From CAVQYV01 sp963718295 [NCBI: uncultured Methylomirabilota bacterium] (GTDB taxonomy: Bacteria; Methylomirabilota; Methylomirabilia; CAVQYV01), in assembly GCA_963718295.1 (NCBI GenBank), contig CAVQYV010000005.1, forward strand, positions 41,781-105,780: a stretch of 64,000 nt of DNA. Direction: 5' to 3'. The notes under the pieces were generated by a model that saw nothing but the letters and a program-made list of their open reading frames with translations, was not told where the DNA came from and made no database searches. Shown piece by piece: positions 1 to 37,294 of the stretch (within the stretch, counting starts at the first letter, position 1; each line of letters starts with the position of its first letter). The translations under genes were made by a program, and so were the position numbers.

Positions 1-105
1 CCGACCCGGCAACTCCTACAGCACTTGGTGCCATGGAGGCTGGGCGGTAGGGCTCATCTGGAAACGGGTGCGCCTCCCGTGCTTGGAAAGGAGTTCGAGT
101 AGCAG
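1..105 (+). promoter_or_regulatory. Moco-type riboswitch aptamer, copy 1
   Basis: The core CGCCTCCCGTGCTTGGAAAG resembles the Moco RNA motif (Rfam RF01055) found upstream of E. coli moaA, as I recall that sequence. A distal stem CATC/GGTG closes a loop containing GGAAACG, and AACTCCT near position 11 can pair with AGGAGTT near 89. The element is about 97/105 identical to the copy at 1992. It precedes the diheme gene at 364. The promoter must lie left of the window. Ligand identity (molybdenum or tungsten cofactor) cannot be read from sequence. Confidence 0.82.
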
Positions 106-113
106 CCGTGATC

Positions 114-150
114 GGCCGGCGTGAGACTCATCTCCGTCGGCCTTCTTTTT
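114..150 (+). terminator. Intrinsic terminator, expression platform of riboswitch 1
   Basis: GGCCGGCG-type arm, a loop, then CGTCGGCC followed by TTCTTTTT. It begins nine bases after the aptamer, so the switch probably acts by transcription attenuation. The 213 bases from here to the gene at 364 contain a purine-rich AAAGGAGGGATG near 291-302 that is also found in the leader of copy 2; no convincing gene is present. Confidence 0.8.
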
Positions 151-363
151 CGTGATCCGGATGAGATCCGCAGGATTAAGCTGCGAAGCGACTCACTTCC
201 CCACTCCCTCTCCTTTCCTCCCGGCGCGACCCCTTGTCTTCCTCCCAGAGAGCCCTCAGGCCTTTTCTCCCAACCAGCCTTAGTTGACAGAAAGGAGGGA
301 TGAAAGGAGATCACTGCATCCTCCTCCCGAAGAGGAAAACGTCATACTCACAGGAGAGGAATC

Positions 364-1761
364 ATGAAAAGAGCCAGATTGCTATCGATGATCGGTTTTG
401 CGTTACTTGCGATGGGAATTGCGGCTGCCATTGCCTGGTCAGCCTACAGTTCCCATCAGAATGATGAGGATATTGCCAAGTTTCTGCAAGTTTATCCCTT
501 TGCTCGCTCCACCAAGCTGGATGATTGCTCCCTTTGCCACCCGGGCGGAACCCTGAGTGGTAAGAGTTACGGAAGTTGCGATTATTGCCACGTCGCCTAT
601 GGGCTCAAGCCTCCTCATGGGCCAGTTCCTTTGAATCCCTATGGATTGGCTTACAAGGATGCAGGGCGAAGCGTAGAGGCCATCCGCAGCATCGAGAGCG
701 CCGACTCAGACGGAGATACCTTCGGCAACCTCGCTGAAATACAGGCCCTCGCTTTTCCGGGGGATCCCCGAGATTATCCGGGATTGGTTGCTGCCACTGC
801 CGTATCTTTGAATCCAAAGCAGATCGAGCAACTCCCTCGTCACCAACAGTTTCTTTTCTTGAATGCCTCCAAATCCCAGGATTTCTATGCACAATATGGG
901 GGGGTCAAGGTTGAAGACATCTTGAACAAGGTGCGTATTGCCCGGGGGGCAACCCAGATTACCGTCTTTGCCCCGGATGGCTTTTCCAAAACCTTCCCCA
1001 TCGACGCACCCGATCCCCAAATCCCTCCCAATATCAGCTACGACGTCTCGGGCCCTTATCCCAAGGGGGCCTACTACGGGGAATTGAATTTCGTGGATTA
1101 TCCTTTGTCGCCGGTCTATCCGACGGGAAAGAAGATCCCCGATGAGCTCCGTTTGATCCTCGCTTATCAGAGGGATGGCAAGCCATTGAGCGTAGGCAAG
1201 CTGGTGCCAGATTCGAGGAATCCGGCAAGATTGGTGCTGGAGGGAGAGGGGCCTTACCGTCTGGTAAATCCCCAGAAGATAGCCGGAAGTCCTGATCGTC
1301 CGTCTACCTCTACTCCCGTCGGCGACGGCTGGGACTACGATCCCAACAAGGACCACAACGCAGGCTCTTCGGTTCGCAGCGTGACGGCAATCCGGGTGGA
1401 GCCTCTTCCGAAAGGGACCACTGATTTCAGCTGGACGGAGGGGGGATGGAACCTCGTAGATCAAGGCAGAGTGGTGATTTATGGGGCCATCGACCCCGTC
1501 AAGTATCCCATCAGGGGATCGATTTTGGACCCCAAAGGAAATCCGGTGGCTGGTGTCCAGATCTCCTTTGCTTTGGCCTCCATGAGCCAGGTGGGGATGG
1601 CTACCTCAGGGGCTGATGGGAAGTTCTGGAAAGATCTGCCCCAAGGGCAATATGTCGTCGCTCCCATCAAAGTTGGATACATCTTCAAGCCTGACGCGGT
1701 ACGAATCGACCTCTCCCATGGGGCAGACAGAATAGACTTCAAGGCCTATCCTGTCCCGTAA
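364..1761 (+). CDS. Diheme cytochrome with molybdopterin-domain-like region (GEGP-motif diheme protein)
   Basis: A 465-residue exported protein. Residues 5-27 form a signal anchor. Two CxxCH heme c sites follow (CSLCH at 55-59, CDYCH at 72-76). Residues about 170-310 resemble the sulfite-oxidase-type molybdopterin-binding fold and carry GEGP at 294-297 followed by YRLVNPQK; the family is known as GEGP-motif diheme proteins. Residues about 380-465 look like a carboxypeptidase-regulatory beta domain. An SD (AGGAGAGGA) precedes ATG 364. The gene stands alone between a Moco-type riboswitch and a strong terminator. Inference: a periplasmic redox protein that binds or depends on a pterin-metal cofactor. 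I see no assigned substrate, and I cannot confirm the conserved cofactor cysteine of sulfite oxidases. Confidence 0.8.
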   Translation: MKRARLLSMIGFALLAMGIAAAIAWSAYSSHQNDEDIAKFLQVYPFARSTKLDDCSLCHPGGTLSGKSYGSCDYCHVAYGLKPPHGPVPLNPYGLAYKDAGRSVEAIRSIESADSDGDTFGNLAEIQALAFPGDPRDYPGLVAATAVSLNPKQIEQLPRHQQFLFLNASKSQDFYAQYGGVKVEDILNKVRIARGATQITVFAPDGFSKTFPIDAPDPQIPPNISYDVSGPYPKGAYYGELNFVDYPLSPVYPTGKKIPDELRLILAYQRDGKPLSVGKLVPDSRNPARLVLEGEGPYRLVNPQKIAGSPDRPSTSTPVGDGWDYDPNKDHNAGSSVRSVTAIRVEPLPKGTTDFSWTEGGWNLVDQGRVVIYGAIDPVKYPIRGSILDPKGNPVAGVQISFALASMSQVGMATSGADGKFWKDLPQGQYVVAPIKVGYIFKPDAVRIDLSHGADRIDFKAYPVP

Positions 1762-1800
1762 GCGTCTCAGGGCGTTGCTTGGGACCTGTATGGGATTCTG

Positions 1801-1844
1801 TCAATCCCGTCAGCTTCAGACCTGCTGACGGGATTGACTTTTTC
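1801..1844 (+). terminator. Strong intrinsic terminator after the diheme gene
   Basis: A 14-base perfect stem (TCAATCCCGTCAGC with GCTGACGGGATTGA), nine-base loop, then CTTTTTC. It isolates the diheme gene from the porin operon. Confidence 0.93.
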
Positions 1845-1943
1845 AGGGCGAGTGGAAGGTTTCATTTTCTTTTCTCTGAATTCCCCTGCTGTAAGCCCGT
1901 GATATCGGGTTCGAAAAAATGCCGGAGGCTATGGATTTATGGC

Positions 1944-1973
1944 TTGACAGTCCAGCAGGGGCGGAAGTATAAG
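1944..1973 (+). promoter_or_regulatory. Sigma70-type promoter for the porin/tupA operon
   Basis: TTGACA at 1944-1949 and TATAAG at 1968-1973, spacing 18. The predicted start of transcription falls about ten bases before riboswitch copy 2, as expected for a 5' leader element. Confidence 0.7.
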
Positions 1974-1991
1974 TGGACAAATATCGAAACT

Positions 1992-2096
1992 CCGACCCGG
2001 CAATTCCTAAAGCACCCGGTGCCATGGATGCCGGGCGGTAGGGCTCATCTGGAAACGGATGCGCCTCCCGTGCTTGGAAAGGAGTTCGAGTGGCAG
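1992..2096 (+). promoter_or_regulatory. Moco-type riboswitch aptamer, copy 2
   Basis: Near duplicate of copy 1 with about eight differences in 105 bases. Several changes keep pairing: the distal stem is CATC/GATG here and CATC/GGTG in copy 1, and a proximal CCCGG/CCGGG stem replaces a GU-rich CTTGG/CTGGG. The conserved core CCTCCCGTG...GGAAAGG is unchanged. It leads into the porin gene at 2379. Confidence 0.85.
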
Positions 2097-2103
2097 CTCA
2101 GAT

Positions 2104-2139
2104 TGGCCGACGTGGGGCTCAACTCCGTTGGCCTTTTTT
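2104..2139 (+). terminator. Intrinsic terminator, expression platform of riboswitch 2
   Basis: TGGCCGACG pairs with CGTTGGCC (one G-T pair), followed by TTTTTTG. Same position relative to the aptamer as in copy 1 with altered but still paired bases. The remaining leader (2140-2378) repeats the AAAGGAGGGATG signal of copy 1 and holds a 16-codon reading frame at 2291-2341 of unknown value. Confidence 0.85.
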
Positions 2140-2378
2140 GCTGTTACTCAGGTGCGGCCCGCAGCTGACACCCCCAGAGAATCCCTTCCCCTCTCCTTCC
2201 CAGCCCGGCCCTTTATCCTCCCGGCAAGAGAGCTACCCAGCTCTCTTCCGCCCATCCAGGCCTACGGCCTTAATTAACAAGAAAGGAGGGATGCCAAAGA
2301 GGAAAGAAAAACGGGCAGGGAATATCGTTTCAGAACCTTGACCTTTTGCCCCTAACAAGTGAGAGAAAGGAGTCTCTT

Positions 2379-3935
2379 ATGAAAGGCATCCGAGGCACCC
2401 TCATCGCAATCATTGCCTTGGCCCTTCTCTTCTTCCTCCCCGGCTCGGGATTCGCGGCGGAAAAGTCTCTGGCCGACATCCTCAAGGAAAAGGGGATCCT
2501 CACCGAGGAAGAATACCAACAAGTCAAGGAGTTGGAGGAATCCCAGAAGGCGGGAGAGGCCAAAAAGGCAGAAGAGGCGACCAAGCAGGCAGAGGAAGCA
2601 ACCAAGCAGGCAGAAGAGGCGACCAAGCAGGCCGAAGAGGCAACCAAGAAGGCAGAAGAGCTGGCCAAGAAGGCGGCGGCCGAGAAACCCGCCCCCGTGG
2701 TTGCCGGCTACAAGAAAGGGTTCTTCATTCAGACCCCGGATGAGAAGTACAAGCTGGTCTTCAACGGATACGTCCGGGGCATGCTTGAGCTTTACGAGAA
2801 CAACACCTCCCAGGACAACCAATTCGATATCAACCGGGCCCGCCTGAACCTCAAAGGATATTATGGGAAGTACTGGATGGGGGAGGTATCGGCAGAGCTC
2901 ACCACCGCCAGCGATAGCAGATTCCTCAAGTACGCCTATATCAATAACAGCTATCTCCCCTACTTGCAGGCTCGGGTCGGACAGTTCAAGGCCCCCTTCA
3001 GCCGGGAATATCTGATCACCCTGGCCGATGTGGAGACCATCATGCGGGCCATGATCACCGATGCCGGCGGAACCTTACCCAAGTATGACATCGGTGCCAT
3101 GCTGTGGAGCCCTAACGTCTTCAACGGGCTGCTCTGGTATGGAGCGGGAATCTTCAATGGCAACGGGGCCAATAATTTCGATTCCAACGATGACATGGAT
3201 TTCATTGGCCGCCTGGTCGTGGCCCCCTTTGCCCCCACCCAGATCTCCGCTTTGAAGGGCCTGGAATTCGGGGGTTCCGTGCAAACTGGAAGGCAGACCC
3301 CTAACCAGAGCTATTCGCCCAGGCTCCCCACCAATTGGTCCCTATTCGGGAACAACAAAACCAGCTTCAGTTACCGCGGACAGCGGGACCGCTACGCCCT
3401 GGAGGCATCCTACAAGTGGGGTCCCCTCACCCTGCGGGGGGAATGGATCTACCAGCGCCTGGAGCGGGAGAATCAGGTCAGGGTCGATCCGACTACCAAT
3501 GCCATCAGCTCCTCGGGAGAGCTGATGGATGCCCCGGATCTGATCTCCTGGGGCTGGTACGTCCTGGGCAGCTATTTTGTCTGGGGGAATCAGGATAAAG
3601 GCATCCAACTGGTAGCCCGCTACGAGCAGTTCGATGTGGATGATGATCCAGCCGCCGAGAAGTACCGTAAGGCCAATCCCATGGCGGAGAACTCGGTCAC
3701 CAACCCCTGGGGCAATGACCTCAACATCAGGGGAAATACGGCGGATGTCCTGACTCTGGGCATCAACTATTTCCCCTATCCCAATGTCCGATTGGCCTTC
3801 AACTGGTTCTATCAGACCCTCGACAACACGTACACCACCGATAAGATCAAGCACAACAACGATGGAGGTGAGTTCTTCACCGGTGGAGGGGGAGCCATGA
3901 ATTCCTTCTGGCTCATGGCCCAGGTGAAGTGGTAA
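2379..3935 (+). CDS. Outer-membrane porin (phosphate-selective porin O/P type) with N-terminal coiled coil
   Basis: A 518-residue porin. Signal peptide 1-26 ends in GFAA. It is followed by a short region LADILKEKGILTEEEYQQ typical of the N-terminus of these porins, then an alanine/glutamate/lysine heptad coiled coil (residues about 64-98), then a long beta-barrel ending in an aromatic/basic VKW. ATG 2379 is chosen over an in-frame upstream TTG because GAGAAAGGAG lies just before it and the signal peptide starts there. First gene after riboswitch copy 2 and ahead of two TupA-type genes, which suggests an outer-membrane channel for tungstate or molybdate rather than phosphate. Substrate is inferred from context only. 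Confidence 0.85.
   Translation: MKGIRGTLIAIIALALLFFLPGSGFAAEKSLADILKEKGILTEEEYQQVKELEESQKAGEAKKAEEATKQAEEATKQAEEATKQAEEATKKAEELAKKAAAEKPAPVVAGYKKGFFIQTPDEKYKLVFNGYVRGMLELYENNTSQDNQFDINRARLNLKGYYGKYWMGEVSAELTTASDSRFLKYAYINNSYLPYLQARVGQFKAPFSREYLITLADVETIMRAMITDAGGTLPKYDIGAMLWSPNVFNGLLWYGAGIFNGNGANNFDSNDDMDFIGRLVVAPFAPTQISALKGLEFGGSVQTGRQTPNQSYSPRLPTNWSLFGNNKTSFSYRGQRDRYALEASYKWGPLTLRGEWIYQRLERENQVRVDPTTNAISSSGELMDAPDLISWGWYVLGSYFVWGNQDKGIQLVARYEQFDVDDDPAAEKYRKANPMAENSVTNPWGNDLNIRGNTADVLTLGINYFPYPNVRLAFNWFYQTLDNTYTTDKIKHNNDGGEFFTGGGGAMNSFWLMAQVKW
2568..2672 (+). repeat. Five tandem 21-bp units encoding a coiled coil
   Basis: Five in-frame 21-base units each encode variants of AEEATKQ. The heptad period fits a trimeric coiled coil that would project into the periplasm from the porin barrel. 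Confidence 0.75.
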
Positions 3936-3997
3936 GGGGAAGGATTGCCACGAATTGAGGCTGCACAGTCCCATCTGAATTCATGGAGAGAGAGGGT

Positions 3998-4872
3998 ATG
4001 CTTCGAGACACCGGGAATATCTTGAAAGTGGGGTATCTGCTGTTGCCCATATGCTTCTGGCTGGTCCTGCCTGCCTTGGTGCAGGCCCAGGGCCAATATG
4101 ACGGGGCCTACGGGAGTGGCGCGAATCCTTTCATCCTGGCCACCGGCAGCCCGGGGGAATTGGGACTGCTGAAGGCGCTGGGAGAGGCCTACGCCACGAA
4201 GGAGAATGCTACGCTCCTCTGGAAGAAGGCGGGCTCGGGGGAAGCCCTGAAACTGCTGAAAGAAAAAAGGTGGACGCCATCATGGTCCACGATCCTGATG
4301 GGGAGAAGAAGGCCATTGCGGAGGGATGGGCGGTGGGGCGCACCCTGATCGGATCCAACGAGTTCTTCATCGTGGGTCCGGTCGGCGACCCTGCTGGCAT
4401 CAGCCAGGCCAAGTCTGCCGCACAGGTCTACCAGCGAATTGCAGCAAGTCGTTCCAAATTCTTCTCCCGAGGGGATCATTCGGGAACCCACAAGAAGGAA
4501 TTGGCGATCTGGAAGAAGGCGGGGATCGAACCCCAAGGTGAGTGGTACCTAATTGCGGGCGGATTTATGAGGGCAACCCTGAAACGAGCCAATGATGAAC
4601 AAGGATATTTCATGACCGATAGCAGCACCTGGATCATGGAAAAGGGCAATTTGCCCGGCCTGAAGGTCCTGTTCAGGGGAGACAAGTTCTTGGTGAACAC
4701 CTATCACGCCCTCTGCCAGCCGCCAAAGGCGACTCCGGGCGCTCCATGGGCTGCTGAATTCATTGAGTTCGTGGCCTCAGCGGATGGGCAGGAGATCATC
4801 CGCACTTACGGGAAGGAGGACTTCAAAGAGGCACTTTACAACGACGCCGTCTATGCCAAGCAATACGAATGA
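3998..4872 (+). CDS. TupA-like tungstate/molybdate-binding protein, one-base frameshift
   Basis: Paralogue of the intact tupA that follows. The first frame gives a signal peptide (MLRDTGNILKVGYLLLPICF to VQAQ) and the start of the binding domain, LATGSPGELGLLKAL. The second frame continues from DAIMVHDPDGEKKA through SRGDHSGTHKKELAIWKKAG to the end. The frames join if the A run at 4263-4268 had seven A instead of six (reading LLKEKKVDAIM). ATG 3998 follows GGAGAGAGAGGG. The family binds oxyanions in the periplasm; TTTSTENTG of TupA is replaced by ATGSPGELG, so specificity may differ. Either a sequencing error or a recent inactivation; the conserved second part favours error. Confidence 0.75.
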
Positions 4873-4891
4873 TGAGATGAAGGAGATCAAG

Positions 4892-5740
4892 ATGAGAACT
4901 CACCAATGGAGATTTATTCTCCTCGCGGTTCTTTCGTTGTTGCTGGTCTTCTCTCTTCCGGCCTTTGCCCAGGAGAGATTAAAGCTCGCGACCACGACCA
5001 GCACGGAAAATACCGGGTTACTAAAGGCCCTGCTTCCCCCATTTGAAGAGAAGAATCATTGTAAGGTGGATGTAATCGCCGTGGGATCTGGGCAATCCAT
5101 CAAGCTGGGCGAACAGGGAGACGTGGATGTCGTCCTGGCTCATGCCCCGGATCTGGAAGAGAAATTCATGAAGGACGGCTTCGGGGTGAATCGCCGCTAT
5201 GTCATGTATAATGACTTCATCATTGTCGGTCCCCCGGAGGATCCGGCGCAGATCAAAGGCCTGAAAGAGGCCAAGGTGGCCTTCAAGAGGATCGCCGACA
5301 CCCAGTCTTCCTTCATCTCCCGGGGAGACAAATCGGGGACCCATGTCAAGGAGCTCGCGATTTGGAAGGCCGCAGGGATCAAGGTGGAAGGCATGAAGGG
5401 GAAATGGTATCTGGAGGCGGGCAAGGGAATGGGAGAGGTCTTGAATATGGCCCATGAGAAAAAGGCCTATACCCTTGCCGATCGAGGGACCTACCTCGCC
5501 TATCAGGATAAGACCAGCTCGGTCATCCTATGTGAGGGAGACCCGATGCTCTTCAATCCCTATCACATCATGGCGGTGAACCCGGCCAAGTTCCCCCATG
5601 TGAAATTTGAATTGGCCACCAAGCTGGTCGAATGGGTCACCTCCCCCGCGGGACAGAAGATCATTCGAGAGTTCAAGGACAAGAAGGGAAATCCTCTATT
5701 CGTCCCCACCGCCGAGGTTAAAGGGACAGGCACCCATTGA
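4892..5740 (+). CDS. tupA: Tungstate ABC transporter substrate-binding protein TupA
   Basis: A 282-residue periplasmic binding protein. Signal peptide 1-26 ends AFAQ. TTTSTENTG at 34-42 is the characteristic TupA oxyanion-binding segment, and SRGDKSGTHVKELAIWKAAG is the second conserved loop. ATG 4892 is preceded by AAGGAG at seven bases. It follows the paralogue by 19 bases, in the porin transcription unit. It would hand tungstate to TupB/TupC encoded at 8245-9951; the three genes are split by a storage-protein block, an unusual arrangement. Molybdate binding cannot be excluded. Confidence 0.92.
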   Translation: MRTHQWRFILLAVLSLLLVFSLPAFAQERLKLATTTSTENTGLLKALLPPFEEKNHCKVDVIAVGSGQSIKLGEQGDVDVVLAHAPDLEEKFMKDGFGVNRRYVMYNDFIIVGPPEDPAQIKGLKEAKVAFKRIADTQSSFISRGDKSGTHVKELAIWKAAGIKVEGMKGKWYLEAGKGMGEVLNMAHEKKAYTLADRGTYLAYQDKTSSVILCEGDPMLFNPYHIMAVNPAKFPHVKFELATKLVEWVTSPAGQKIIREFKDKKGNPLFVPTAEVKGTGTH

Positions 5741-5821
5741 TCGCATAGTGCCCCCCAATCCCCTGGCTGGTGGGCGAGGTCAAGGGGCGCGGCACAAGTA
5801 GACCCTCTATCGCCTCGGGAG

Positions 5822-5847
5822 AAGCCCCGTCCCGGGGCAGGGGGCTT
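5822..5847 (+). terminator. Stem-loop after tupA
   Basis: AAGCCCC pairs with GGGGCTT across a GC-rich loop. There is no U-tract, so termination is only possible. It lies 80 bases after the tupA stop. Confidence 0.4.
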
Positions 5848-5926
5848 AATTGTCAAGGTAGTTCAGCCCTGCCCTTCACCTCCGAGGGCGGGCCGCCTTT
5901 CCGCCTGTACTCTATTCTGCCTTGAA

Positions 5927-5964
5927 GGATCACCCCGAGTATCGGCTGGTATTCGGGGTGATCC
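5927..5964 (+). repeat. Twelve-base inverted repeat in the tupA to 6196 gap
   Basis: GGATCACCCCGA and TCGGGGTGATCC form a perfect inverted repeat with a 14-base loop. No T-run follows. It may be an operator or a second transcription stop. Nothing else recognisable lies in 5741-6195 apart from the stem-loop at 5822. Confidence 0.6.
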
Positions 5965-6195
5965 CCTATCCTCCCGACACCTCTATTAATAGGATCTTTA
6001 TGTTCATTATGTTTATGTCCATTCTCTATGCTCTCTCATTCACCTCGTCAGAGCCCAAGCAGTTGCCCGCCCCACGAAAAGGACTTCCTTGGGAAGAGAT
6101 TATGATGTAATATGCAAGGAAGAGTATATCCGCTGCTTAGTGCCATATCTCAAATGGCGTAACATCCATTTCTGCCTCCCGCGGAGAATCAGAGC

Positions 6196-6924
6196 ATGCA
6201 ATTCTACATCGGCTTTGATGACACAGATACCGTCGATTCCGACCGTGGTACGGGAAAATTGGCTCGCTGGTTTGAGGGCCAACTGCCTCAGGCCTGCCGC
6301 ATGTGGGGTGTCGTTCGCCAACAACTCTTGATGGATGATTCCATTCCCTACACCTCTCACAATAGCTCGGCCTGTGTCGTCGTGGAAGCCCCCAACATGG
6401 ACATCATGAATGAGTTGCTTGCCAGGGCGATCGATCATATTGAGCGGCATTCCTTGCCGGGGAGCGATCCGGGGTTGTGCTTGAGCCATGAAGGCCATCC
6501 CTCATTGTCTGAATTGATCCACTTTGGACGAGCGTGCGCCACCAGGGTGGTTACCCAAAAAGATGCCCTTCGAGCCGCTAACGGGGTTCATCTCTCGGGC
6601 CATGGGGGTACCAATGACGGCATCATAGGGGCTGCTGCGGCCGTCGGTCTAACGGCCTACGGATGGGGTGGCAGATTCATTGAGTTCGGAAAATTGCGGG
6701 GTTTTCCTGAGCAGGTCTATGTATCAGATCTGGAAGGGGCGGGGATCGCGGTGGTCTCCATGGATCGGGACGCCCGAGTTCCGGGTCCGGAGGATGTGGT
6801 CAAGACCAATGGCTGGCTGCGCCCCCGGCTTTGGGGAGGGAGCCCGGGATTGCCGGTGACATCCAGAGGTGAAAACCTTTGGGAGACCTTGGGAGAGAAG
6901 AAAAGGAAGGAAAAGGAAACATAG
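6196..6924 (+). CDS. TiaS-like protein (tRNA agmatinylcytidine synthetase N-terminal domain family)
   Basis: A 242-residue cytoplasmic protein. The N-terminus IGFDDTDTVDSDRGTGKLAR matches the DDTDS-type nucleotide-binding signature of archaeal TiaS. Later conserved stretches are SSACVVVE and the glycine-rich LSGHGGTNDGIIGAAAAVGL. It is shorter than TiaS and appears to lack the C-terminal RNA-binding domains. GGAGAATC precedes ATG 6196. It sits 11 bases before a small gene and ahead of the molybdenum-storage gene, so a role in metal or nucleotide handling is more likely than archaeal-type tRNA modification. Function not assigned. Confidence 0.6.
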   Translation: MQFYIGFDDTDTVDSDRGTGKLARWFEGQLPQACRMWGVVRQQLLMDDSIPYTSHNSSACVVVEAPNMDIMNELLARAIDHIERHSLPGSDPGLCLSHEGHPSLSELIHFGRACATRVVTQKDALRAANGVHLSGHGGTNDGIIGAAAAVGLTAYGWGGRFIEFGKLRGFPEQVYVSDLEGAGIAVVSMDRDARVPGPEDVVKTNGWLRPRLWGGSPGLPVTSRGENLWETLGEKKRKEKET

Positions 6925-6935
6925 GAGGAATTGAA

Positions 6936-7163
6936 ATGGCTGGGAAGATCTTTTATCGAGAGAGAGGAAAGGTGGGCGAGGGGGAGAAGAAGCCGCGGTT
7001 CAAGTTAGTGGCCGTGGCAGATGTCAATCTAAAGGTCTATGGAAAGCACCTTCGCAGAAGCGAGCTCGAGCAGATCGCAAAGGGTGTCGGCGCTGATTTG
7101 ATACTGCTCTCTGGCGGCGAAGGGAAATACGAAAAAGAGGAAGAGGTGGAGGTCGCGGACTGA
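6936..7163 (+). CDS. Small hypothetical protein in the Mo/W cluster
   Basis: A 75-residue charged protein with no signal peptide or membrane span. ATG 6936 follows ATAGGAGGAATTGAA, a strong SD. The middle (FKLVAVADVNLKVYGKHLRR, then SELEQIAKGVGADLILLSGG) looks like a compact alpha/beta fold, and the tail is acidic. I do not recognise the family. Position between the TiaS-like gene and the storage-protein gene suggests a joint function with them. Confidence 0.65.
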   Translation: MAGKIFYRERGKVGEGEKKPRFKLVAVADVNLKVYGKHLRRSELEQIAKGVGADLILLSGGEGKYEKEEEVEVAD

Positions 7164-7232
7164 GGTCAAGCAGCCTCTTGCGGCTGTTGGCCCTTCCTTA
7201 CAACCCGTGAGATCCGAATAGGAGTCCATTCG

Positions 7233-8063
7233 ATGGCTTTAGTGCGCGAACGCGACGGGCGCCGCCTGCATGTCAAAAGCAAGTTGATGGGAGAGAGTCT
7301 GGTCAGCAAATCATTCGTTGAGGGGTTAGAAATAGCCCCTCAACAGCGTCTTTTCCCGGATGTGAATATCCTCAAGGTAGGAGGGCAATCCATTTGTGAC
7401 CGCGGGGTGAAGGCGGTCCCCGATGTGATTCAAGAGATCGTTGCCAATAAAGGGGAGCACAAGATGCTGGTGACCACCGGGGGTGGGACGCGGAGCCGCC
7501 ACATCTATTCCATCGGGCTGGAGCTGGGCATGCCCACCGGGATCATTGCCAAATTTGGAAGTTCGGTCTCGGAACAGAACGCCCTCCTCATCAGCACGCT
7601 CCTCTCCCCCTGGGGAGGAATCAAGATCGGCCACGACGAGATCGTCAAGCTCCCCACTTACTTTGCCCAGGGCTGTATTCCGGTCACCCACGGCATGCCT
7701 CCCTACGACTTTTTTGCCATTCCGCCCGAAAAGGGACGGATCCCCGTCCATCGAACCGATGTGGGCACATTGCTCTTGGCCGATCTGATCGGTGCCAGAA
7801 GCTGCATCTTCATAAAGGACGAGAAGGGACTTTACACGGACGATCCCAAAAAGAACCCCAAAGTGGAATTCATCGCTGAGATTGGGGCCAAGGAGCTTCT
7901 GCGCAGAGGTCTGGACGATCTGATCATCGAACGGCCCTGCCTGGAGATCCTTCAGAATAGCCAGGTAATCACCCGGATTTACATCATCAACGGTCTCGAG
8001 AAAGGGAATATCACCCGAGCCCTCCAGGGCGAAAATGTAGGGACCATCATTTACAAAGAATAG
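7233..8063 (+). CDS. Molybdenum/tungsten storage protein subunit (MosA/MosB type, UMP-kinase fold)
   Basis: A 276-residue amino-acid-kinase-fold protein. Matches to the MoSto family include VGGQSICDRG near the N-terminus, VTTGGGTRSRHIYSIGLELG, GSSVSEQNALLISTLLSPWG, THGMPPYDFF and the lysine-containing FIKDEKGLYTDDPKKNP. MoSto of Azotobacter is an alpha3beta3 cage that packs polyoxomolybdate or tungstate with ATP. Only one subunit gene is present here, so it may form a homohexamer. Its position between tupA and tupBC supports metal storage. It is not the housekeeping PyrH, which is shorter and lacks these loops. Confidence 0.85.
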   Translation: MALVRERDGRRLHVKSKLMGESLVSKSFVEGLEIAPQQRLFPDVNILKVGGQSICDRGVKAVPDVIQEIVANKGEHKMLVTTGGGTRSRHIYSIGLELGMPTGIIAKFGSSVSEQNALLISTLLSPWGGIKIGHDEIVKLPTYFAQGCIPVTHGMPPYDFFAIPPEKGRIPVHRTDVGTLLLADLIGARSCIFIKDEKGLYTDDPKKNPKVEFIAEIGAKELLRRGLDDLIIERPCLEILQNSQVITRIYIINGLEKGNITRALQGENVGTIIYKE

Positions 8064-8065
8064 TG

Positions 8066-8170
8066 GGCGACCCGAACCATTTCCTCTAAAGGCCTTGGGT
8101 CCATGAGGAATGGTCGATAGGGTATTGTGGGAAACGACAATGCCTCCCGTGTTTGGAAAGGGTGAAGACG
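8066..8170 (+). promoter_or_regulatory. Moco-type riboswitch aptamer, copy 3
   Basis: Diverged copy directly after the storage-protein stop. Core TGCCTCCCGTG.TTGGAAAGGG is kept. The distal hairpin has different bases but the same shape, ATTGT/ACAAT around a GGAAACG loop, which is clear covariation with copies 1 and 2. A separate long stem ACCATT..CCTC / GAGG..AATGGT lies at its 5' side. It controls the TupBC genes at 8245. Confidence 0.78.
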
Positions 8171-8180
8171 TGCTGAGTAG

Positions 8181-8225
8181 AATGCCAGTGCCTGATCCAA
8201 CGAGGCCACTGGCATTTGTTTCTTG
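8181..8225 (+). terminator. Intrinsic terminator, expression platform of riboswitch 3
   Basis: AATGCCAGTG pairs with CACTGGCATT, followed by TTTCTT-rich sequence, ten bases after the aptamer and about 20 bases before the GTG of tupB. Same layout as the other two switches with unrelated stem sequence. Confidence 0.78.
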
Positions 8226-8244
8226 CCCCAACTGAGGAATACAG

Positions 8245-8934
8245 GTGGACTTCATCATAGAGGCTATCGTTACGTCGTTTCGACTCATCATCACCTTGAA
8301 TCCTGAGGTGTTTGAGGTGGTCTACTTTACTCTCAAAGTATCCTTCTGGGGGACCCTGCTCTCGACGCTCTTCGGGGTTCCCATCGGGTTCCTCATAGGG
8401 ATCAGGGAATTCCCGGGGAAAGGGATGGTGCGCACCATCCTCAACACCCTCATGGCGCTTCCCACTGTGGTGGTAGGCCTCACGGTATATGCTTTCATCT
8501 CCCGACAGGGGCCGTTGGGACAATGGGGGCTTCTCTTCAGCCCCAAGGCGGTCATCATTGGCCAGTGGGTGTTGGCTGCTCCATTGATTACCGCCCTGAC
8601 TCTATCCGCCACCCAGTCCGTTGATCCGCGGGTTGCCCTTTCAGCCCAGACCCTGGGGGCCAGCCGCAGTCAAGAGGCAATCGCGGTCCTCAAAGAAGCC
8701 AAGTTTGCCCTTATGGCTGCCATAACGGCGGGATTCGGCCGAGTCATTGCGGAAGTGGGGGCTGCGATGATGTTGGGCGGCAACATCCGCGGTTATACCC
8801 GAACCATGACCACGGCCATCGCCCTGGAATCCAGCAAGGGGGAATTTGGCTTTGGTTTGGCCTTGGGCCTTATCCTGATGGCTCTGGCCTTAGCCATCAA
8901 CTTCTTCTTCACCTATCTTCAGGGGAGGAAGTGA
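8245..8934 (+). CDS. tupB: Tungstate ABC transporter permease TupB
   Basis: A 229-residue inner-membrane permease with about five hydrophobic segments. The cytoplasmic coupling loop FGRVIAEVGAAMMLGGNIRG contains the EAA-type motif of oxyanion permeases, and the TRTMTTAIALESSKGEF segment after it is typical of TupB/WtpB-like proteins. Start is GTG 8245 shortly after the riboswitch 3 terminator. The stop abuts the tupC start, so the two are cotranscribed and probably translationally coupled. Confidence 0.9.
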   Translation: MDFIIEAIVTSFRLIITLNPEVFEVVYFTLKVSFWGTLLSTLFGVPIGFLIGIREFPGKGMVRTILNTLMALPTVVVGLTVYAFISRQGPLGQWGLLFSPKAVIIGQWVLAAPLITALTLSATQSVDPRVALSAQTLGASRSQEAIAVLKEAKFALMAAITAGFGRVIAEVGAAMMLGGNIRGYTRTMTTAIALESSKGEFGFGLALGLILMALALAINFFFTYLQGRK

Positions 8935-9951
8935 ATGGTCTCGAATTCTTCCGGCGGTTTTGAACTTGAAGTCCACCAAATCAAGCACCTCTATAATGAT
9001 AGAGCCGCACTGGATATCGCTGAGCTTTCCTTCCAGAAGGGAAAGATCTATGGTTTAGCGGGATCCAATGGGGCAGGCAAGAGCACCCTGATGCTCATTC
9101 TCAGCCTCCTTCTCAAGCCAAGCTCGGGCCGTGTCCTTTTCCGGGGGGTGGAGGTCACCGATGGAAATCGGAGGGATCTGAGGGGGCGGATCAGTATGCT
9201 TCTCCAGGATCCCCTCCTCTTCCGCAATACGGTCGCCAGGAACGTGGAGTACGGCCTGAGGATTCGGCATATCGCGAGAACGGAGAGGAAGAAAAGGGTC
9301 ATGAAGAGTTTGGAAATGTTGGGGTTGGAAGATTTCGCCGACCGAAAGGCGAGGGAGCTCTCTGGAGGGGAGGCCCAGAGGGTCGCCATCGCCCGCGCCC
9401 TGGCGATCCAACCGGAAATCCTTCTTCTCGACGAGCTTACCGCCAATGTGGATGAGGGCAATGTCAAGATTGTGGAGGAGATCGTCCGATCCTTGAGTAG
9501 GGAATCGGGCGCCACCGTGATCTTTTCGACCCATGACAAAGATCAGGCCCACCGACTGGCCGATGAGACGATCATCCTCTTGGAAGGAAGGATCACTCCC
9601 TTTTCCCCGGAGAACATCTTCAAAGGGAAGACTATCCGGGATGGAGAAGGGACCTGGTTCGACACGGGCAGGATCAGGGTCTTCCTGCCCAATGGAGAAG
9701 AGGCCAGGGCCATCTCTATAAGCCCCGAGGAAATCGTGGTTTCTCTGTCCCCGTTCAACTCCAGTGCCCAAAACCGGGTGGAAGGCACAATTGAGAGTAT
9801 GGTCGTCGACGGGGACGGCGTGAGGCTCTTGATAAATGCCCCGGAGCAGTTCCACGTGCTCATCACCAAGAAATCCTTGTGCGAGTTGAACCTCAATGTG
9901 GGGATGCGGGTTTATCTCACCTTCAAGAGCACCGCAGTAAAGGTATTCTGA
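8935..9951 (+). CDS. tupC: Tungstate ABC transporter ATP-binding protein TupC with C-terminal TOBE/Mop-like domain
   Basis: A 338-residue ATPase that powers TupB. Walker A GSNGAGKST at 43-51, signature LSGGEAQRVAIARAL, Walker B ILLLDELTANVD and switch histidine in IFSTHDKD. After the ATPase core (about 1-230), residues about 265-338 form a TOBE/Mop-like domain (EGTIESMVVDGDGVRLLI), which in molybdate and tungstate ATPases binds oxyanion and gives feedback. ATG directly follows the tupB stop. No SD other than GGGGAGGAAG within tupB. Confidence 0.92.
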   Translation: MVSNSSGGFELEVHQIKHLYNDRAALDIAELSFQKGKIYGLAGSNGAGKSTLMLILSLLLKPSSGRVLFRGVEVTDGNRRDLRGRISMLLQDPLLFRNTVARNVEYGLRIRHIARTERKKRVMKSLEMLGLEDFADRKARELSGGEAQRVAIARALAIQPEILLLDELTANVDEGNVKIVEEIVRSLSRESGATVIFSTHDKDQAHRLADETIILLEGRITPFSPENIFKGKTIRDGEGTWFDTGRIRVFLPNGEEARAISISPEEIVVSLSPFNSSAQNRVEGTIESMVVDGDGVRLLINAPEQFHVLITKKSLCELNLNVGMRVYLTFKSTAVKVF

Positions 9952-36589: not shown

Positions 36590-37294
36590 CTAATCCTTCT
36601 TTTCAGGTGAGAGGGCCTCGATACCGAAAGGAAATACGCATTCCTCCACCTCCAGGCCCTTGTCCGCCAAAACGAAAGAGGTCTTCAGGGCCGCTATCTT
36701 GGCCTTGGGGTGAAGAGAACCGAAGAGGACCAATCCTTGTCTGGACTCCCCGGGAAGGATGGGAGCGGGGGAAAAGAGCAGGCCGGCCAGGACCTTGATC
36801 TTCTGCTGCCCCCCTCCCTCTTCGGACAGATTCCGATAGAGCTCCGTATACTCGATGGGCTGCAGCTCGCTTCCCTTGTCGCCCCCGAAGGTGGCGAAGC
36901 GCCCTCCCGTGACCATGGGTACTTTGGAGCTGTTGGTCGCGGTGATGAGGAATGCGTTGGTGCCCTCAAACCAGGCGGGAGCGGGATCGAAGAGGGCGGG
37001 GTTCGGAGAGTGGGAGGCCAGATGGGCCTGCAACTCCGGCTTCTTGAGATATTTCACCTCCACCGTCGATCTCTCGGAGCCGCAGACCAGAAAGCCATCC
37101 TTGATCTCGTGGCCCGCTTCCACCCAGGCGGGGCTGGGGGCCAGCTGCCTTTCCCCTACGATCTGGGGGGCGCATCCCGAGAGGGCCGCGCCCAGGACGA
37201 GCGAAGAGAGGACGACAAAGGAGAGGAGAAGGAATCGGATCCGGGGAACCCGTCCCCGCCCTCCCCTGGCTCGCCTACCGGGCCCGCTCTTCAA
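36590..37294 (-). CDS. Putative lipoprotein of unknown function
   Basis: A 234-residue protein with lipobox LSGC near residue 41 after a basic N-terminus. It has one further visible cysteine pair region (FLVCGSERS). No recognised family. It overlaps the end of htpX by four bases, so it is translationally coupled to an envelope protease. Confidence 0.65.

What the first reader, a model, noticed from the sequence alone, without database searches (positions are those of the whole stretch)
1..8225. Three Moco-type riboswitches with terminators in one 8-kb locus
Three copies of the CCTCCCGTG...GGAAAGG core lie before three transcription units of Mo/W function. Each is followed within ten bases by an intrinsic terminator. 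The distal hairpin covaries (CATC/GGTG, CATC/GATG, ATTGT/ACAAT) while its GGAAACG loop is fixed. Three such switches in one locus would form a compact cofactor-responsive regulon. Whether they sense the molybdenum or tungsten cofactor is open; linkage to Tup genes makes tungsten plausible.
Basis: partly seen in the sequence, partly recalled or inferred. Interest (0 to 1): 0.85.

Follow-up and report, generated by a model that had tools for sequence, protein, structure and literature searches.

The report
Tungsten-type riboswitches over uptake genes
Three copies of a known RNA switch that probably senses the tungsten form of a metal cofactor sit among tungsten uptake and storage genes, and two of them stand directly before a heme protein and an outer-membrane pore.

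Summary
RF01055 (Moco RNA) matches at 1-109 (58.4 bits, cut by the window edge), 1978-2100 (76.0) and 8058-8178 (63.6); gathering score 36. A terminator hairpin starts 2-4 nt after each model end (z -4.5, -3.9, -5.7). All three lack stem P3, the form tied to the tungsten cofactor by Regulski 2008 (PMC2408646), which also reports three P3-less copies in series in Syntrophomonas wolfei; kind and clustering are therefore known. Neighbours fit tungsten: TupA (E 4.5e-95 to a tungstate-binding protein), TupB/TupC-like genes and a molybdenum-storage-protein beta homologue (E 4.4e-66). Less expected are the first genes: switch 1 precedes a GEGP diheme protein, switch 2 a Porin_O_P porin. Switch-porin-diheme recurs in six related genomes; in 8 of 11 genomes having both the diheme gene and any switch, one lies within 3 kb upstream on the same strand. 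Three-switch loci with the storage gene recur in L042, L053 and L061. Ligand identity is untested. Verdict: new member of a known kind, with a testable extended regulon.

The parts
1..109 (+). Switch 1: P3-less Moco/Tuco aptamer, 5' end (model positions 1-14) cut off by the window edge
   Evidence: RF01055 58.4 bits; 10-nt P2-P4 linker, no P3
114..150 (+). Terminator 1: hairpin 114-142 and U-tract 143-150
   Evidence: -21.1 kcal/mol for 110-152, z -4.50
364..1761 (+). GEGP motif-containing diheme protein, 465 aa, two CXXCH motifs, N-terminal hydrophobic segment
   Evidence: NF041762 376.7 bits, cut-off 300; motifs
1800..1843 (+). Terminator-like hairpin 1800-1838 and T-run that close unit 1
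   Evidence: -29.2 kcal/mol followed by T5
1944..1973 (+). Sigma-70-like promoter TTGACA-18-TATAAG; the start it predicts lies within a few bases of the first base of switch 2
   Evidence: only + strand site with at least 10 of 12 matches in 1-9951; mean 0.52 in 50 mononucleotide shuffles; not listed, which demands T at the last base of the -10
1978..2100 (+). Switch 2: P3-less Moco/Tuco aptamer
   Evidence: RF01055 76.0 bits; no P3
2105..2139 (+). Terminator 2: hairpin 2105-2133 and T6
   Evidence: z -3.91
2379..3935 (+). Outer-membrane porin, Porin_O_P family, 518 aa
   Evidence: PF07396 E 2.6e-19
3983..4872 (+). TupA-like paralogue split by a frameshift near an A-tract (ORFs 3983-4348 and 4270-4872)
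   Evidence: C-terminal ORF: TupA model E 1.3e-29
4877..5740 (+). TupA, tungstate-binding protein homologue (287 aa from the ATG used)
   Evidence: PDB 3lr1 E 4.5e-95; NF041772 247 bits, cut-off 400 not reached; TTTS motif present (its role in TupA is recalled)
6196..6924 (+). p242, weakly like the N-terminal part of TiaS / methanogenesis marker 11
   Evidence: E 0.002-0.004 only; found near MosB-like genes in many of the 66 loci
6936..7163 (+). p75, conserved small protein upstream of the MosB-like gene
   Evidence: found upstream on the same strand in 63 of 66 loci; alignment; no PDB match
7233..8063 (+). Homologue of molybdenum storage protein beta subunit (MosB-like, amino-acid-kinase family)
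   Evidence: 2ogx_B E 4.4e-66, alpha subunit E 8.1e-42; PF00696
8058..8178 (+). Switch 3: P3-less aptamer that begins at the stop codon (8061-8063) of the MosB-like gene
   Evidence: RF01055 63.6 bits; no P3
8181..8224 (+). Terminator 3: hairpin 8181-8216 and imperfect U-tract
   Evidence: z -5.66
8245..8934 (+). TupB-like permease
   Evidence: NF041773 217.9 bits, cut-off 320; NF038017 239 bits, cut-off 100
8935..9951 (+). TupC/WtpC-like ATPase with TOBE domain
   Evidence: NF040840 218 bits, NF041774 159 bits, both below cut-off; TOBE

Best explanation
The locus is a tungstate acquisition and storage cluster under three P3-less Moco-family riboswitches that most likely sense the tungsten cofactor and act by transcription attenuation. 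Shown by computation: three aptamers above threshold, no P3, a terminator hairpin after each, a promoter-like site just before switch 2, a terminator-like hairpin closing unit 1, and homology of the genes. Inferred: when the cofactor is plentiful the aptamer is stabilised, the terminator forms and transcription stops before the diheme gene, the porin-TupA unit and tupBC; when it is scarce, the 3' side of the aptamer pairs with the terminator and transcription goes on. Switch 2 heads a transcription unit, and switch 1 probably does too (its upstream lies outside the window). Switch 3, which starts at the stop codon of the storage-protein gene and has no strong promoter before it, would be an internal attenuator that gates tupBC separately from the upstream genes. 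The porin would bring tungstate through the outer membrane; the diheme protein's role is unknown, but it travels with the porin and often with TupA.
For: RF01055 matches; P3 linker of 10 nt in all three, within the 8-12 nt of 102 of 108 matches; published P3-less/Tuco correlation, 17 of 19 organisms (PMC2408646 section 11); terminators and 79 of 100 against 50 of 300; own aptamer-terminator pairing -19.3 kcal/mol mean against -15.7 (sd 0.34) permuted and -16.4 (sd 0.34) permuted in GC blocks, 0 of 5000 as low, 73 of 100 switches used; TupA and MoSto homologies; tup/p242/p75/MosB clusters in relatives; switch-porin-diheme order in G001, G013, G016, G023, G066, G071; 8 of 11 genomes linked, 0.03 expected under random placement; promoter-like site and hairpin that bound unit 2.
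Against: No ligand binding or expression data exist here, and for the class the authors could not demonstrate direct binding (PMC2408646 section 12). P3-less switches are not purely tungsten-linked: in L006 one precedes a ModA-like gene (382 bits, cut-off 264); 5 of 83 first ORFs match the ModA model at E up to 1e-10, some of which are the WtpA-like ones. TupA-, TupB- and TupC-like proteins score below the curated equivalog cut-offs. For the window's own switches the antiterminator is not special: 41, 24 and 43 of 73 terminators pair as well or better with switches 1, 2 and 3. The wider segment was chosen, where a control segment 18 nt upstream was also better than permuted (0 of 1000 as low; controls 36 and 60 nt upstream were not). 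For switches 2 and 3 the predicted minimum-energy folds hold P1 and terminator together, which fits the OFF state but shows no switching. The generic scans found promoters (6 against 5.6 expected) and terminators (16 against 12.1) near chance, with only part of terminator 2. 35 of 65 genomes reached through a MosB-like gene have no RF01055 match above cut-off (with stricter filters).
Confidence: 0.72

Rival explanations
1. The switches sense the molybdenum cofactor, or both cofactors without discrimination; absence of P3 is a lineage trait, not a ligand code.
For: A P3-less switch precedes a ModA-like gene in L006 (L006:8322-9143, 382 bits, cut-off 264). Deleting P3 from the E. coli RNA abolished regulation and did not switch specificity (PMC2408646 section 11). 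MoSto is named for molybdenum.
Against: Tup genes border the switches in the window and in L042; published near-perfect P3/ligand correlation.
Confidence: 0.25
2. The porin and the diheme protein are not for uptake: they form an electron conduit or an enzyme partner that is swapped in when tungstoenzymes cannot be made, so that the switch chooses between metabolisms rather than controlling metal supply.
For: Two CXXCH motifs; the porin has a weak match to ExtI of a selenite/tellurite reduction operon (E 2.7e-6, 26 bits against a cut-off of 150).
Against: In relatives porin-diheme is followed by TupA (G001, G016, G023) or diheme by TupA (G070, G088, G013 C276), which fits uptake better.
Confidence: 0.2
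3. Relict or neutral duplication: switch 1 and its leader are a recent copy of switch 2 and carry no selected function.
For: 98 of 109 identical positions; the leaders downstream are alike too; the TupA-like paralogue is frameshifted.
Against: The changes between terminators 1 and 2 keep the stem paired (two one-sided changes, G-C to G-U and G-U to A-U; sequences). In a Syntrophaceae MAG (L046, G046) a switch also lies directly before the diheme gene.
Confidence: 0.08

Closest known systems
Moco RNA motif / Molybdenum-Tungsten riboswitch aptamer (RF01055), P3-less group
   Same: Sequence, structure, GAAA loop, terminator platform, link to transport genes
   Different: Targets here include a Porin_O_P porin and a GEGP diheme protein, and one copy lies 3' of a storage-protein homologue; the words porin, storage, cytochrome, heme and outer membrane do not occur in the main text of PMC2408646 (its supplements were not seen)
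Triple P3-less Moco RNA series of Syntrophomonas wolfei (PMC2408646, section 11)
   Same: Three P3-less copies in one locus, terminators after the first two, transport genes
   Different: There three in a row within one seven-gene operon; here each copy gates a different gene group in 8 kb
Molybdenum storage protein MoSto (PDB 2ogx)
   Same: Beta-subunit homology over residues 16-273 of 276
   Different: A single gene in this locus, beside tup genes; p75 next door and no alpha-subunit gene in the locus
Tub, tungsten storage protein of Eubacterium limosum (PMC11980592; abstract and passages seen)
   Same: Role proposed: tungstate storage
   Different: TOBE-domain protein; the MosB-like protein matched the amino-acid-kinase family, not TOBE

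Membership tests
RF01055 Moco/Tuco riboswitch | Covariance-model score above the gathering threshold | tested here: met
   76.0, 63.6, 58.4 bits, cut-off 36
RF01055 Moco/Tuco riboswitch | Conserved helices with covariation | tested here: met
   91.5% of cells paired, covariation 0.560 against 0.208, 0 of 500 shuffles (alignment fitted to the model, so it leans towards it; slid controls at most 0.126)
RF01055 Moco/Tuco riboswitch | Expression platform (terminator or RBS) next to the aptamer | tested here: met
   three terminator hairpins; the third has a weaker U-tract
RF01055 Moco/Tuco riboswitch | Ligand-dependent gene control | not testable with these tools
   needs reporters or cell extract
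P3-less (Tuco) subgroup | No P3 stem | tested here: met
   10-nt linker in all three; the six matches with room for P3 show 25-31 nt
P3-less (Tuco) subgroup | Tungsten genes in the same organism | tested here: met
   TupA-, TupB- and TupC-like genes in the window; equivalog cut-offs not reached
P3-less (Tuco) subgroup | Selective response to the tungsten cofactor | not testable with these tools
   inferred, not shown, in the sections read of PMC2408646
MoSto | Sequence homology to the MoSto subunits | tested here: met
   E 4.4e-66 and 8.1e-42
MoSto | Two subunits, alpha and beta | tested here: inconclusive
   only one such gene in this locus; the rest of the genome cannot be searched and assembly was not tested. 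I therefore say homologue, not MoSto
TupABC | Curated NCBIfam equivalog cut-offs | tested here: not met
   247 of 400, 218 of 320, 159 of 400 bits; best PDB match of TupA is nevertheless a tungstate-binding protein. I therefore say Tup-like for B and C and do not claim specificity

The most novel reading that the evidence does not exclude
P3-less switches command a complete envelope-to-store tungsten route: an outer-membrane porin and a GEGP diheme protein for tungstate entry, TupABC for inner-membrane transport and a MoSto-like store, with separate gates on its stages; the porin-diheme pair would be a dedicated outer-membrane uptake module for tungstate, the first that I know of.
Probability: 0.33. 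Interest if true: 0.65.

Novelty: new member of a known kind. Interest (0 to 1): 0.45.

Why it matters
If the switches answer to the tungsten cofactor, the genes behind them become candidate tungsten genes. That gives functions to test for a porin, a diheme protein family (NF041762) and two conserved neighbours (p242, p75), and offers a multi-copy system for the open question whether P3-less Moco RNAs read tungsten rather than molybdenum.

Tried and rejected
Rejected: the 9-mer core as evidence in itself (a fourth exact copy at 36903 is no aptamer). The generic terminator scan gave 16 sites against 12.1 expected and recovered only part of terminator 2, so hairpins were folded directly. The antiterminator test limited to 18 nt of the P1 strand was dropped as main evidence because a neighbouring control segment was also significant; the extended version with GC blocks is used, and its segment was chosen. 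A profile of p75 against solved structures found nothing. No match of 1-9951 in plasmids. Paper searches listed no paper that I recognised as describing a porin or GEGP diheme gene under this switch. That speaks only for the open-access library and the rows listed (for example 15 of 107), plus passages of PMC3766115, PMC2700814, PMC2996986, abstract and passages of PMC11980592, and abstract, sections 5, 11, 12 and passages of PMC2408646. Structure prediction was not used.

Rows dropped before counts: 8 of 108 matches were the same DNA held under a second locus and were left out (100 used); one search used 72 and one search used 73 of those 100 (in one search: 21 without a hairpin of -8 kcal/mol or better, 6 without a recognised core). 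Of 100 switches 90 had a first ORF by my rule; 7 repeats were removed and 83 scanned. Rfam was run on 14 of the 66 loci; all 66 were searched with my own model, which was built from 32 sequences, two of them from the window. One MosB locus (L056) was not sent as a handle, so 65 of 66 were. Of the many matches only 30, 30 and 6 new loci and the 20 regions were fetched; one search did not list all its matches.
Full report
What is there. The Rfam scan of the whole window finds three RF01055 matches above the gathering score, all on the + strand: 1-109, 1978-2100 and 8058-8178, with 58.4, 76.0 and 63.6 bits against 36. The first is cut by the window edge and lacks model positions 1-14. In the cmscan alignments nearly all P3 positions of the model are deleted in all three. 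In an alignment of 108 matches from this window and other genomes, the linker that would hold P3 is 10 nt in the three window copies, 8-12 nt in 102 of 108, and 25-31 nt in the other six. Switches 1 and 2 are near-copies (98 of 109).

Structure. On 100 distinct sequences the model's 26 pairs are 91.5% standard pairs, 21 pairs change on both sides, and the covariation score is 0.560 against 0.208 for shuffles (0 of 500 as high) and at most 0.126 for slid controls. The alignment was fitted to the model and so leans towards it.

Expression platform. Hairpins at 114-142, 2105-2133 and 8181-8216, each followed by a U-rich tail, fold better than all 200 shuffles (z -4.50, -3.91, -5.66). The third tail is imperfect. 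Of 100 switches, the window's three included, 79 have a terminator-like hairpin within 90 nt, against 50 of 300 random positions on the same loci. For an antiterminator I asked whether the 3' part of each aptamer pairs better with its own terminator than with those of other switches: mean -19.3 kcal/mol, against -15.7 (sd 0.34) for permutations and -16.4 (sd 0.34) for permutations within GC blocks, 0 of 5000 as low in both (73 of 100 switches usable). In several relatives the terminator carries the exact complement of the conserved aptamer core (CCGTGTTTGG with CCAAACACGG in L160 2581-2701 and L171 4034-4155). Relatedness was not modelled, and the segment tested was chosen, in which one of three control segments was also better than permuted. 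The window's own switches are not outstanding: 41, 24 and 43 of 73 terminators pair better with switches 1, 2 and 3 than their own; with the shorter P1 segment the numbers are 13, 7 and 33 of 72. So the antiterminator is supported for the set and only plausible here.

Units. A TTGACA-18-TATAAG site at 1944-1973 is the only + strand site with at least 10 of 12 matches in 1-9951 (0.52 expected from mononucleotide shuffles), and the start it predicts falls within a few bases of the start of switch 2; a -29.2 kcal/mol hairpin followed by a T-run at 1800-1843 closes the unit before it. The stricter generic scan does not list this promoter, and its promoter count was at chance. A second strong hairpin (5927-5964, -31.3 kcal/mol, no T-run) lies between TupA and p242, so whether p242, p75 and the MosB-like gene belong to the switch 2 unit is open. 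Switch 3 begins at the stop codon of the MosB-like gene (stop 8061-8063, aptamer from 8058) and has no comparable promoter before it, which suggests an internal attenuator for tupBC. What lies upstream of switch 1 is outside the window.

Genes. Unit 1: GEGP diheme protein (NF041762, 376.7 bits, cut-off 300) with two CXXCH motifs. Unit 2: Porin_O_P porin, a frameshifted TupA-like paralogue, then TupA, whose best solved relative is a periplasmic tungstate-binding protein (3lr1, E 4.5e-95). Then p242, p75 and a homologue of the molybdenum storage protein beta subunit (E 4.4e-66), switch 3, and TupB- and TupC-like proteins. TupA, TupB and TupC all stay below NCBIfam equivalog cut-offs, so tungstate specificity is an inference.

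Relatives. A scan with the MosB-like protein gave 66 loci; by their record titles most are from deltaproteobacterial (Syntrophaceae and similar) MAGs, others from Synergistaceae, Firmicutes lines such as Syntrophomonas and Pelotomaculum, Spirochaetia and one Actinomycetota MAG. Five (L007, L008, L020, L030, L037) carry TupA-TupA-TupB-TupC-p242-p75-MosB in full and in that order, others parts of it; p75 lies upstream of MosB on the same strand in 63 of 66. 15 of the 66 loci hold at least one switch, and three hold three (L042, L053, L061). L042 (a Synergistaceae MAG) has one before p242-p75-MosB, one between MosB and TupABC, and one before a WtpA-like gene. L053 (a Thermoanaerobacteraceae MAG) has one before p242-p75-MosB, one before an ECF-type transporter, and one after it. 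L061 (a Syntrophomonas MAG) has one before p242 and two in tandem before a TupA-led gene group on the other strand. The clustering is therefore recurrent, not peculiar to this window. Against a tight link, 30 of 65 genomes reached through a MosB-like gene have a switch above cut-off and 35 have none.

The diheme and porin link. NF041762 is above cut-off in 13 of 98 genomes, the same 98 being given as relatives of G006 and of G001, and in 4 of 25 other genomes that were picked because they have switches. Of these 17 genomes, 11 have a switch above cut-off anywhere, and in 8 of the 11 a switch lies at most 3 kb upstream of the diheme gene on the same strand (G001, G013, G016, G023, G046, G057, G066, G071); G003, G062 and G070 do not. 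About 0.03 such cases would be expected if switches were placed at random; the genomes are related, so the nominal probability is not to be taken at face value. In G013 the linked diheme copy is a contig-end piece below the cut-off (248.8 bits). In six of the eight the order is switch, porin, diheme; in three of these TupA follows (G001 and G023 only as pieces at a contig end), two end at a contig end, and in G071 TupBC lies upstream instead. Six further genomes have the diheme gene without any switch found (stricter filters). Among the 13 relatives a TupA or TupB relative lies in the fetched stretches in 7. The diheme gene thus belongs with Tup more widely than with the switch.

First genes behind the switches. 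Of 83 first ORFs scanned, 14 match the formate dehydrogenase alpha model (12 also or instead match NuoG), 6 MoaA, 5 TupA, 4 a WtpA model and 5 ModA at E up to 1e-10, the last two overlapping, and 6 match Porin_O_P at E up to 1e-5, the window's own included. This is largely a Mo/W gene set with a clear tungsten share, but not a pure one.

Comparison with the literature. Regulski et al. 2008 (PMC2408646; abstract, sections 5, 11, 12 and passages read) described the RNA, the P3-less group with its correlation to tungsten use, terminator platforms, tandem copies and a triple series in S. wolfei. The window is therefore a new member of that kind. The words porin, storage, cytochrome and heme do not occur in its main text (supplements not seen), and the paper listings showed me no other account. 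That paper gives at least 15 copies for S. wolfei; more per genome occur here, 30 in G055 and 26 in G048.

Conclusion. The structure and platform are established by computation, the tungsten reading is likely but untested, and the attractive new part is the recurring switch-porin-diheme order next to tup genes.

Noticed in passing
window 3983-4872: A TupA-like paralogue is split into two frames near an A-tract; it could be a sequencing slip, slippage or decay. Loci with two TupA-like genes in a row occur in relatives (L007, L008, L020).
   Followed up: partly
window 6936-7163: p75: a conserved protein of about 58 aligned residues (invariant R8 E9 R10, P20, H38, R40 in 22 sequences), upstream of the MosB-like gene in 63 of 66 loci; no structure match and no Pfam match.
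   Followed up: partly
window 6196-6924: p242 is weakly similar to TiaS and methanogenesis marker 11 and recurs near MosB-like genes.
   Followed up: partly
G055 (L054) and G048 (L048): A Pelotomaculum MAG with 30 and a Desulfoscipio MAG with 26 RF01055 matches; both also have several long open frames with short weak matches to the diheme model.
   Followed up: no
L053 5603-8266: A switch lies before an ECF-type transporter (two ATPases and a CbiQ-like component) next to the MosB-like gene.
   Followed up: no
L006 5494-9146: A porin of another family (Porin_5) lies between a switch-led TupA and a switch-led ModA-like gene.
   Followed up: no
window 8058-8075: A ribosome ending at the MosB-like stop codon could cover the P1 5' strand of switch 3, so translation might interfere with aptamer folding (inference from positions).
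   Followed up: no
window 150-360 and 2140-2378: The long leaders after terminators 1 and 2 are also alike in part, with a shared AAAGGAGGGATG stretch, pointing to duplication of the whole leader.
   Followed up: partly
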